Source: Mycobacterium sp. 3519A
Lineage (GTDB): Bacteria > Actinomycetota > Actinomycetes > Mycobacteriales > Mycobacteriaceae
Reading direction: 5' to 3'
Assembly (NCBI RefSeq): GCF_900240945.1
Contig: NZ_OESG01000013.1
Location: 2,503,622-2,567,621, forward strand
Length of the DNA: 64,000 nucleotides
Shown piece by piece: positions 24,195-29,730 of this stretch. The position numbers and the translations under genes were made by a program. The notes beneath the pieces were generated by a model, which saw only the letters and a list, made by a program, of their open reading frames with translations, was not told the DNA's origin and made no database searches. The first letter of the stretch is position 1. Every line of letters starts with the position of its first letter.

Positions 24195-24235
24195 GGCGGC
24201 GGATGGGAAAAGCCTGTGGGCGGCGGGTGGGAAAA
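24195..24235. repeat. Pair of 17-base direct repeats in a divergent promoter region
   Basis: GGCGGCGGATGGGAAAA at 24195-24211 recurs at 24219-24235 with a single change (A to G). The offset is 24 bases. The repeats lie in the 119-base spacer between the lipoprotein and MarR-GNAT starts and could be binding sites or slippage products. Confidence 0.6.
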
Positions 24236-24255
24236 ATTCGTGGTCATCAGCCTGA

Positions 24256-27152: not shown

Positions 27153-27962
27153 GTGAACTTTGTCCTAGTAGATAAGCCGCGGCCGCACGTCGCGCTGGTG
27201 ACGCTGAACCGGCCAGAGCGAATGAACTCGATGGCGTTCGACGTCATGGTTCCGCTCAGGAAAGTGCTCGACGAGCTGACCTACGACAACGACACGCGGG
27301 TGATTGTGCTCACAGGAGCGGGCCGCGGGTTCTCGTCCGGTGCTGACCACAAGTCGGCCGGAGCCGTACCGCACATCGACGGGTTGACCCGGCCGACGTT
27401 CGCGCTGCGGTCGATGGAGGTCCTCGACGAGGTGATCCTGGCGCTGCGCAAGATGCACCAACCGGTCATCGCGGCGGTCAACGGCGCGGCGATCGGCGGC
27501 GGGCTGTGCCTGGCGCTCGCCTGCGATATCCGAATCGCAGCTTCCGGGGCATATTTCCGTGCCGCGGGCATCAACAACGGCCTGACTGCGAGCGAACTCG
27601 GGCTGTCGTATCTGCTGCCGCGGGCGATCGGGACGTCGAGGGCGTTCGAGTTGATGTTGACCGGACGTGACGTCGACGCCGAGGAGGCCGAGCGCATCGG
27701 GCTGGTGTCTAGGACGGTTCCTGACGACGAACTGCTCGACGTTTGCTACGAATTCGGCGAGCGGATCGCGGGGTTCTCGCGGCCGGGAATCGAGTTGACC
27801 AAGCGCACACTATGGAGTGGACTGGACGCCGCTAGCCTGGAAGGGCACATGCAGGCCGAAGGCCTGGGACAGCTCTTCGTCCGTTTGCTCACCGGCAACT
27901 TCGAAGAAGCGGTCGCCGCGCGCGCCGAGAACCGCGCGCCCATCTTCACCGACGACAAGTAA
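27153..27962 (+). CDS. echA12: Enoyl-CoA hydratase/isomerase family protein
   Basis: The 269-residue crotonase-fold protein has the CoA-binding and oxyanion-hole segments VLTGAGRGFSSGADHKSAG and VNGAAIGGGLCLALACDIR. The second conserved part is LGLSYLLPRAIGTSRAFELML. In this family a glutamate after the second oxyanion loop (TASELGLS here) and another upstream act as the catalytic acid/base. The specific substrate is unknown; fatty-acid beta-oxidation is the usual role. The symbol is from synteny with Rv1472. Its GTG follows a perfect hairpin. Confidence 0.88.
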   Translation: MNFVLVDKPRPHVALVTLNRPERMNSMAFDVMVPLRKVLDELTYDNDTRVIVLTGAGRGFSSGADHKSAGAVPHIDGLTRPTFALRSMEVLDEVILALRKMHQPVIAAVNGAAIGGGLCLALACDIRIAASGAYFRAAGINNGLTASELGLSYLLPRAIGTSRAFELMLTGRDVDAEEAERIGLVSRTVPDDELLDVCYEFGERIAGFSRPGIELTKRTLWSGLDAASLEGHMQAEGLGQLFVRLLTGNFEEAVAARAENRAPIFTDDK

Positions 27963-27995
27963 GTAGGGGAGTAGCAGTAGCGTGGAGCGGCGCCG

Positions 27996-28052
27996 ATGAT
28001 CCGCGCCGGCGACGATGCATCGCGAAGCGATGAGGAGGAGTGGCGCCGATGA
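27996..28052 (+). CDS. MIRU mini-ORF 1, 18 codons
   Basis: The frame reads MIRAGDDASRSDEEEWRR and stops with a TGA that overlaps the ATG of the next copy (ATGA). A GGAG motif lies eight bases upstream. It is acidic in the middle and is identical to the second mini-ORF. Translation is plausible but not shown; its role may be to pass ribosomes on to the ABC-F gene. Confidence 0.45.
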   Translation: MIRAGDDASRSDEEEWRR

Positions 28053-28105
28053 TCCGCGCCGGCGACGATGCATCGCGAAGCGATGAGGAGGAGTGGCGCC
28101 GATGA
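28049..28105 (+). CDS. MIRU mini-ORF 2, 18 codons, coupled to the ABC-F gene
   Basis: This is the second copy of the 18-residue frame MIRAGDDASRSDEEEWRR. Its ATG overlaps the stop of mini-ORF 1 and its TGA overlaps the ATG of the ABC-F gene at 28102, so the three frames form a chain of ATGA junctions. A GGAGGAG motif precedes it by eight bases. Confidence 0.45.
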   Translation: MIRAGDDASRSDEEEWRR

Positions 28106-29730
28106 TCACCGCAACGGACCTCGAGGTCCGCGCAGGCGCGCGCACGCTGCTGTCCACCGAGGGCACGGCGCTGCGGGTGCAGCCCGGTGACCGGATCGGA
28201 CTTGTCGGGCGCAACGGCGCAGGCAAGACCACGACCATGCGCATCCTCGCGGGCGAAGGCGAACCGTATGCGGGCACGATCGCCCGCAGCGGGGAAATCG
28301 GCTACCTGCCACAGGATCCCAAAGAGGGCAACCTCGAGGTGTTGGCCCGGGACCGGGTGCTTTCGGCGCGCGGCCTGGACACCTTGCTGGCCGATCTGGA
28401 AAAGCAGCAGGCGCTGATGGCCGAGGTTGCCGACGACGCCACCCGGGACCGGGCGGTGCGCCGCTACGGCCAACTGGAGGAACGGTTCGCGGCACTCGGC
28501 GGCTACGCCGCCGAAAGCGAGGCGGGCCGCATCTGCGCGAGTCTCGGTCTGCCGGAACGTGTTCTGACTCAACCGCTTCGCACCCTCTCGGGTGGTCAGC
28601 GCCGTCGGGTCGAACTGTCCCGCATCCTGTTCGCGGCCAGCGACACAGGTGCGGGCTCGGCCACCACACTGTTGCTCGACGAGCCGACCAACCACCTCGA
28701 CGCCGACTCGCTGGGCTGGCTGCGCGACTTCCTGCGTGGGCACACCGGCGGCCTCGTGGTGATCAGCCACAACGTCGAACTGCTCGCCGACGTCGTCAAC
28801 CGGGTGTGGTTCCTCGACGCCGTCCGCGGCGAGGTCGACGTCTACAACATGGGCTGGCAGAAGTACCTCGACGCGCGGGCCACCGACGAACAACGCCGCC
28901 GCCGCGAACGCGCCAACGCCGAACGCAAAGCCTCAGCGCTGCGGGCCCAGGCCGCCAAGATGGGCGCAAAGGCTACCAAAGCCGTTGCCGCACAGAACAT
29001 GCTGCGTCGCGCCGACCGGATGATGGCCGCCCTTGACGAGGAACGGGTGGCCGACAAAGTGGCCAGGATCAAGTTCCCGACCCCGGCGCCGTGTGGCCGC
29101 ACGCCGTTGGTGGCGAAGGGTCTGACGAAGAACTACGGCTCGCTCGAGGTGTTCACCGGTGTCGACCTCGCGATCGACCGTGGTTCGCGCGTCGTGGTGC
29201 TCGGGCTCAACGGCGCGGGCAAAACCACGCTGTTGCGGTTGCTGGCGGGCGTCGAGACACCGGACTCCGGCGCGTTGGAACCCGGCCATGGAATGAAGAT
29301 CGGCTACTTCGCGCAGGAGCACGACACGCTCGACAACATGGCGACGGTGTGGGAGAACATCCGCCATGCCGCGCCCGACACCGGTGAGCAGGATCTGCGG
29401 GGTCTGTTGGGCGCGTTCATGTTCAGCGGCGCGCAACTCGATCAACCCGCTGGCACGCTGTCCGGTGGTGAGAAGACACGGCTGGCACTTGCGGGCCTCG
29501 TCGCGTCGACCGCGAATGTGCTGCTGCTCGACGAACCGACCAACAACCTCGACCCGGCGTCGCGCGAGCAAGTGCTCGATGCGCTGCGCAGCTACGCGGG
29601 CGCGGTCGTGTTGGTGACGCACGATCCCGGCGCCGCCGAAGCGCTCGACCCGCAACGCGTTGTGTTGCTGCCGGACGGCACAGAGGACTTCTGGTCTGAC
29701 GAATATCGGGATCTCATCGAACTGGCCTGA
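28102..29730 (+). CDS. ABC-F family ATPase
   Basis: The 542-residue protein has two ABC domains and no membrane segments. Domain 1 shows Walker A GRNGAGKTTTM, signature LSGGQRRRVELS and Walker B LLLDEPTNHLD. A charged linker follows at about residues 250-320 (DEQRRRRERANAERKA). Domain 2 shows Walker A GLNGAGKTTLL, signature LSGGEKTRLAL and Walker B LLLDEPTNNLD. ABC-F proteins act on ribosomes, either in translation control or in antibiotic protection. Length equals Rv1473 (542, from memory). The ATG giving MITATDLEV sits inside the third MIRU copy and overlaps the stop of mini-ORF 2; an in-frame upstream GTG would add three residues. Confidence 0.92.
   Translation: MITATDLEVRAGARTLLSTEGTALRVQPGDRIGLVGRNGAGKTTTMRILAGEGEPYAGTIARSGEIGYLPQDPKEGNLEVLARDRVLSARGLDTLLADLEKQQALMAEVADDATRDRAVRRYGQLEERFAALGGYAAESEAGRICASLGLPERVLTQPLRTLSGGQRRRVELSRILFAASDTGAGSATTLLLDEPTNHLDADSLGWLRDFLRGHTGGLVVISHNVELLADVVNRVWFLDAVRGEVDVYNMGWQKYLDARATDEQRRRRERANAERKASALRAQAAKMGAKATKAVAAQNMLRRADRMMAALDEERVADKVARIKFPTPAPCGRTPLVAKGLTKNYGSLEVFTGVDLAIDRGSRVVVLGLNGAGKTTLLRLLAGVETPDSGALEPGHGMKIGYFAQEHDTLDNMATVWENIRHAAPDTGEQDLRGLLGAFMFSGAQLDQPAGTLSGGEKTRLALAGLVASTANVLLLDEPTNNLDPASREQVLDALRSYAGAVVLVTHDPGAAEALDPQRVVLLPDGTEDFWSDEYRDLIELA

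What the first reader, a model, noticed from the sequence alone, without database searches (positions are those of the whole stretch)
27984..28107. MIRU tandem repeat builds a chain of coupled mini-ORFs into an ABC-F gene
Two full 53-base units and the start of a third each present GGAG, eight bases and an ATG. Each unit encodes the 18-residue frame MIRAGDDASRSDEEEWRR, whose TGA overlaps the next ATG. The last stop overlaps the ABC-F start. MIRU elements with overlapping small frames are known in mycobacteria; the inference here is that copy number sets the number of re-initiation steps before a ribosome-acting ABC-F protein. That could tune its level or make it respond to ribosome stress.
Basis: partly seen in the sequence, partly recalled or inferred. 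Interest (0 to 1): 0.72.

Follow-up and report, generated by a model that had tools for sequence, protein, structure and literature searches.

The report
Mobile repeat hijacks ABC-F start codon
A short mycobacterial repeat sits in two copies exactly at the start codon of a predicted ribosome-protecting ABC-F gene, where its tiny overlapping reading frames would likely pass ribosomes along to the gene; it likely entered this same start codon separately in other lineages, so it looks like a mobile start-codon cassette rather than a dedicated stress switch.

Summary
In detail: two identical 53-base units plus a partial one at 27984-28107, each with GGAG, eight bases, ATG and an 18-codon frame whose TGA overlaps the next start. 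The array is a lineage-specific insertion: 0 of 80 named orthologues has a unit at this start; the closest has a 14-base remnant. Five other genomes, on three other branches of the gene tree, carry one in-frame unit at this same start codon. In a core-chosen sample, 51 of 75 unambiguous arrays have the frame-keeping length. The conserved part is a hairpin fused to the Shine-Dalgarno sequence, with compensatory changes, not a peptide. Tuning by copy number or ribosome stress is untested and not favoured. MIRU insertion at start codons with coupling is already published; this is a new member.

The parts
27153..27962 (+). upstream gene, enoyl-CoA hydratase (EchA-like)
   Evidence: NCBIfam NF004519.0, 547 bits against a cut-off of 337
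27966..27971 (+). native Shine-Dalgarno-like GGGGAG
   Evidence: sequence; shared with the closest relative L016
27982..27999 (+). native GTG start, now a 5-codon frame whose TGA overlaps the first unit's ATG
   Evidence: translation; position of the start in orthologues
27985..27998 (+). 14-base partial unit (3' end of a MIRU); the only MIRU part left in sister genome L016
   Evidence: comparison with L016/L126
27984..28107 (+). MIRU array, period 53, 2.3 copies
27996..28052 (+). unit 1 mini-ORF, 18 codons
28018..28032 (+). unit 1 hairpin CATCGC-GAA-GCGATG (predicted)
   Evidence: fold of the 22-mer -7.3 kcal/mol; compensatory changes across MIRU cores
28033..28040 (+). unit 1 Shine-Dalgarno AGGAGGAG, 8 bases before ATG 28049
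   Evidence: sequence
28049..28105 (+). unit 2 mini-ORF, 18 codons; its TGA overlaps the ABC-F ATG
28071..28085 (+). unit 2 hairpin (predicted)
   Evidence: as unit 1
28086..28093 (+). unit 2 Shine-Dalgarno AGGAGGAG, now serving the ABC-F start
   Evidence: sequence
28102..29730 (+). ABC-F gene, 542 aa, predicted OcrA (Rv1473)/MAB_2736c orthologue
   Evidence: its first seven codons encode the same residues as those of the MAB_2736c primer printed in PMC13041422

Best explanation
Two 53-base MIRU-class units occupy the start codon of an ABC-F gene, where they likely arrived by insertion, and each unit would likely hand ribosomes from a tiny frame to the next start through an ATGA overlap and its own Shine-Dalgarno sequence, predicted to leave ABC-F translation about as strong as before. 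Shown from sequence: the units and frames, the empty site in relatives, in-frame single units at the same start codon on three other branches of the gene tree, and the same layout before many unrelated genes. Inferred: a MIRU entered the GTGATC start of an ancestor; a 14-base fragment plus two tandem units remain here, and only the fragment in the sister genome; MIRUs persist at start codons because hairpin + Shine-Dalgarno + ATGA rebuilds a working start. Predicted, untested: ribosomes start at the native GTG, stop after five codons, restart and pass through two 18-codon frames into ABC-F, with fresh initiation possible at every Shine-Dalgarno sequence, so unit number would matter little.
For: Coupled frames here. 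Empty sites: 0 of 80 named orthologues has a unit at the start (L056 has a MIRU-like core ending 30 nt upstream of it); the sister L016 (about 94-95% DNA identity) has 14 bases only. One in-frame unit at the same codon in L127, L128, L129 (53 nt) and L155, L156 (62 nt); at least 4 changes on a 117-row ABC-F tree, one-clade AU p=0.0152. Same unit before regX3, frr and many others; 96 of 112 core-chosen arrays lead into an open frame of >=60 aa or one running off the stretch. Frame-keeping length in 51 of 75 arrays with one unambiguous DTGA entry, all 51 coupled, 1.5e-9 against 1/3. Start opening energy of the window 10.3/6.6 kcal/mol against medians 11.25/7.0 of 118 others. Published: MIRUs insert at start codons with -4 spacing (PMC12548453, passages).
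Against: No expression or ribosome data. 24 of 75 arrays are not in the frame-keeping length, and 53 may simply be a ~46-nt core plus ~7 nt of target repeat, so the frame excess need not be selection on coupling. The tree is a quick one, on 900 nt, and the AU p is modest. L129 and the sister L016 have costlier starts in the short fold (10.5 and 10.2 against a third quartile of 8.6). How MIRUs move is unknown, and no other MIRU was found in the own genome to act as a source.
Confidence: 0.75

Rival explanations
1. One reading: unit number sets the number of re-initiation steps and so tunes ABC-F level or makes it respond to ribosome stress.
For: End-to-end coupling; 0, 1 or 2 units at this start in different species; the gene is a predicted ribosome-protection ABC-F; PMC4128351 (passages) says VNTR copy number can alter promoter activity of neighbouring genes.
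Against: Not specific to ABC-F; each unit has its own Shine-Dalgarno sequence; 86 of 112 arrays have one unit; predicted start opening about unchanged; loss of re-initiation under translation inhibitors would lower output, the opposite of useful induction (inference).
Confidence: 0.1
2. The array acts mainly at the transcription or DNA level: internal promoter, RNA stability or recombination hot spot; the mini-ORFs are incidental.
For: PMC4213456 (passages) says the MIRU-bearing senX3-regX3 intergenic region drives regX3 independently; PMC4128351 (passages) reports a 77-nt 5' UTR made of a MIRU before ParA in M. bovis while the M. marinum gene is leaderless.
Against: No TANNNT inside the units; the only one near lies at 27978, upstream. 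Frame-keeping lengths are in excess.
Confidence: 0.12
3. The 18-residue peptide itself is a functional product.
For: Open frame in both units and in the ABC-F units of other lineages.
Against: Column entropy is equal at codon positions 1, 2, 3 (0.43, 0.44, 0.43 bits) in 151 distinct cores; the per-site non-synonymous to synonymous ratio in this frame (0.69) is close to that of another frame (0.77; third frame 1.19); 24 of 75 arrays lack the frame-keeping length.
Confidence: 0.03

Closest known systems
MIRU of the senX3-regX3 locus, M. tuberculosis complex (53- and 77-bp units; Supply 1997, cited in PMC12548453, not read)
   Different: Target gene is an ABC-F gene; the native start is kept as an extra 5-codon frame; the stem is fully Watson-Crick (CATCGC/GCGATG), not the usual CAGAGC/GCGATG
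uORF-coupled genes (review PMC12548453, passages)
   Same: Short upstream frame would deliver ribosomes to the next start at -4 spacing
   Different: Here the uORF arrived as a repeat and exists in two tandem copies plus a remnant
whiB7-type leader uORF attenuation of mycobacteria (PMC4128351, passages)
   Same: uORF upstream of an intrinsic-resistance gene
   Different: No terminator was examined here and no sensing was shown; same element before unrelated genes

Membership tests
MIRU | 53-bp (or 77/101-bp; the 101 recalled) tandem unit | tested here: met
   period 53; a 53-bp MIRU is named in PMC4213456
MIRU | same repeat family as the units before regX3 | tested here: met
   L109 array found by homology to the window units; its downstream protein hits RegX3 2oqr, E=5.7e-141. 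No named M. tuberculosis MIRU was aligned
MIRU | small frame overlapping the neighbouring start at -4 | tested here: met
MIRU | insertion at a DTGA site / start codon (DTGA recalled from Supply 1997) | tested here: met
   native GTGATC in relatives, DTGATC on both sides of the unit in carriers
MIRU | dispersed in many copies in the genome | tested here: not met
   one locus only in the own genome; dispersed in other genomes of the genus. Copy number per genome ranges from none upwards across the genus, so this does not define membership
MIRU | mobility | tested here: inconclusive
   empty sites and several insertions at one codon; no transposition enzyme sought or shown
OcrA (Rv1473) ribosome-protection ABC-F | ABC-F sequence with tandem ATPase domains | tested here: met
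   YbiT, PoxtA, EttA hits in PDB over nearly the whole length; NCBIfam ribo_prot_ABC_F 337 bits, below its curated cut-off of 380
OcrA (Rv1473) ribosome-protection ABC-F | orthology to Rv1473/MAB_2736c | tested here: inconclusive
   N-terminal MITATDL as in the MAB_2736c primer; gene order recalled only; no direct alignment to Rv1473
OcrA (Rv1473) ribosome-protection ABC-F | protects ribosomes from 50S drugs | not testable with these tools
   reported for OcrA and MAB_2736c (PMC9159947, PMC13041422, passages)

The most novel reading that the evidence does not exclude
MIRU is a mobile start-codon cassette: a compensating hairpin welded to a Shine-Dalgarno sequence that lands on DTGA start codons and rebuilds them. 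It hit the ABC-F (OcrA-type) start at least four times, and in this genome it has turned the native start into the head of a three-frame relay before a ribosome-protection protein, where drug-stalled ribosomes in the relay could change how much of the protein is made.
Probability: 0.15. Interest if true: 0.65.

Novelty: new member of a known kind. Interest (0 to 1): 0.38.

Why it matters
MIRUs are used mainly as typing markers. This locus gives a natural series (empty, remnant, one unit, two units) at one start codon in related species, and so makes the old idea that MIRUs are translation-neutral insertions directly testable. The hairpin-plus-Shine-Dalgarno core suggests what the element needs to keep. 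If unit number did change ABC-F output, it would link repeat variation to a ribosome-protection gene.

Tried and rejected
Rejected: chance or low-complexity repeat. Peptide function. Terminal inverted repeats (GCGCCG/CGGCGC) as a paired structure: 35 double-change pairs exceed shuffles, but a slid control gives 31, so this is not supported. First frame count (64 of 91) picked the entry start nearest to the expected offset, which favours length 53, and held the window itself; recounted without both as 51 of 75, or 56 of 80 with the nearest DTGA. The two-unit query favours 53-nt units, so its 111 arrays (113 loci given, 2 without a hit) were not used for that count. GCGNAGC as an exceptionally stable DNA mini-hairpin is recalled (one search gave listings only); the loop base N is also the third base of a CGN Arg codon, so its variability cannot decide between the two. 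Paper searches without a direct study of MIRU mini-ORF translation, MIRU at ocrA, or the hairpin in their listings: (0 papers); subscription papers are not held, Supply 1997 among them.

Full report
What is there. The window carries an EchA-like gene (27153-27962), a short gap, the array (27984-28107) and an ABC-F gene (28102-29730). The two 53-nt units are identical; each encodes MIRAGDDASRSDEEEWRR* and ends with TGA inside the next ATGA. The GTG at 27982, 10 nt after GGGGAG, lines up with the start codon of the orthologues, most of which read ..GTGATCACC; here it opens a 5-codon frame ending on the first unit's ATG. The chain is therefore 5 + 18 + 18 codons and then ABC-F.

What it is. Among 111 arrays read from a two-unit homology search (113 loci given), the downstream genes include RegX3 (L109; PDB 2oqr, E=5.7e-141) and ribosome recycling factor (L097; PDB 1wqf, E=3.4e-111). 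184 of 248 genomes have a hit at E<=0.01, some of them weak; 57 of 118 have an exact match to a degenerate core pattern. With a joint repeat-plus-ABC-F query none of 40 genomes of other families of the order matched at E<=1e-15. Position and overlap agree with the published description of MIRUs inserting at start codons with -4 spacing (PMC12548453, passages); a 53-bp MIRU is named in PMC4213456 (passages).

Age and recurrence at ABC-F. Of 80 named orthologues (the best 80 of 498 stretches found), none has a unit at the start (read by eye; fuzzy search of 300 nt upstream). L056 has a MIRU-like core ending 30 nt upstream of the start; two other fuzzy hits (L081, L090) look like native sequence; L049 has a shorter relic seen by eye only. 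The closest relative, L016 (Mycobacterium sp. ACS1612; about 94-95% DNA identity around the locus), has GTG-GAGTGGCGGCC-ATGATC: no unit, but a 14-base remnant that also makes a 5-codon frame ending on the ABC-F ATG. In 396 genomes of the genus I found intact units at this start in six: the own genome, G018, G194, G253, G130 and G150. This is a floor, since the table was capped and the patterns are exact. All five others carry one unit, of 53, 53, 53, 62 and 62 nt, in frame, with a 4-base overlap. On an ABC-F tree of 117 rows, first 900 nt, quick method, the trait needs at least 4 changes, with or without remnants; holding the eight carriers and remnants together is rejected with p-AU 0.0152. 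I read this as at least four insertions into one codon, with moderate support.

Frame. To avoid the length bias of the two-unit query I took the arrays listed (a capped list from 24 genomes; all but two listed arrays fetched, plus those already held). Of 110 arrays without the window, 12 have no start codon just after the core, 4 lead into a frame under 60 aa and 4 have no entry start. Of the 75 with exactly one DTGA entry, 51 have length 2 mod 3 (18 are 1, 6 are 0; binomial 1.5e-9 against 1/3; 46 of 70 after merging equal downstream N-termini), and all 51 are coupled. Related loci are not independent, and a ~46-nt core plus a ~7-nt target repeat gives 53 without any selection. One unit is the rule: 86 of 112.

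What is conserved. In 151 distinct cores the block GACGATGCAGAGCGNAGCGATGAGGAGGAG varies little, except for N; entropies at codon positions 1, 2 and 3 are equal. The block holds a six-pair stem with a GNA loop that ends directly on the Shine-Dalgarno sequence. In the common form the two central pairs are G-A oppositions (174 of 203 distinct cores), and the predicted stability is low (-1.6 kcal/mol RNA, 0 DNA), which speaks against a strong stem there. Seven of 203 cores pair all six positions, the window's among them (-7.3 kcal/mol). Compensatory changes: 11 double changes against a shuffle mean of 0.56 (0 of 2000 shuffles reach it) and 0-2 in slid controls; with one row per locus (209 rows) 9 against 0.3, slid controls 0-2. 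They come from roughly six separate genes. The window's own pairing arises by changes on one side only. The outer inverted repeat failed its slid control (35 against 31).

How it likely works. The last unit supplies AGGAGGAG and an 8-base gap to the ABC-F ATG. Predicted opening energies of natural starts: window 10.3 and 6.6 kcal/mol (long and short fold), other carriers 9.4-13.6 and 7.1-10.5, 118 others with medians 11.25 and 7.0, quartiles 9.1-13.9 and 6.0-8.6. Most carriers lie inside the spread; L129 and the remnant-bearing L016 are worse in the short fold. I therefore expect a roughly neutral insertion with both coupled and fresh initiation, and little effect of unit number. None of this is measured.

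Gene context. OcrA/Rv1473 and MAB_2736c are reported as ribosome-protection ABC-F proteins (PMC9159947, PMC13041422, passages). The window protein is an ABC-F by PDB hits (YbiT E=1.9e-70, PoxtA 1.1e-68, EttA) and shares its first seven residues with MAB_2736c; orthology is predicted, not aligned. A ribosome-protection gene behind a translated relay is suggestive of drug sensing, but the same layout before regX3 and frr argues for a general element.

Verdict. A real, well-preserved MIRU insertion, a new member of a known kind, with three additions: the captured native start, the repeated targeting of one start codon, and the hairpin-Shine-Dalgarno core.

Noticed in passing
L097, L122, L123, L171, L176, L212, L264: MIRU units precede the ribosome recycling factor gene (frr) in several genomes, some with 50-nt or 52-nt units; L097 was checked against PDB, the others by their N-terminus.
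   Followed up: partly
Species of these genomes are unknown.
   Followed up: partly
L040, L047, L048, L078, L079, L141: A second short tandem palindromic repeat (around GAGCGCTAGCGCGAGGAG) sits at the 3' end of the EchA-like gene in several orthologous loci.
   Followed up: no
L100, L119, L162, L177, L194, L196: 52-nt MIRU arrays: frames skip from unit to unit (for example 35-codon frames over two units, or 12+6 codon steps), so coupling takes another form or is lost.
   Followed up: partly
L226: MIRU array with 76-nt and 52-nt spacings side by side in one locus.
   Followed up: no
window 24195-24243: Two-copy 24-base tandem repeat (score 63) near another gene start.
   Followed up: no
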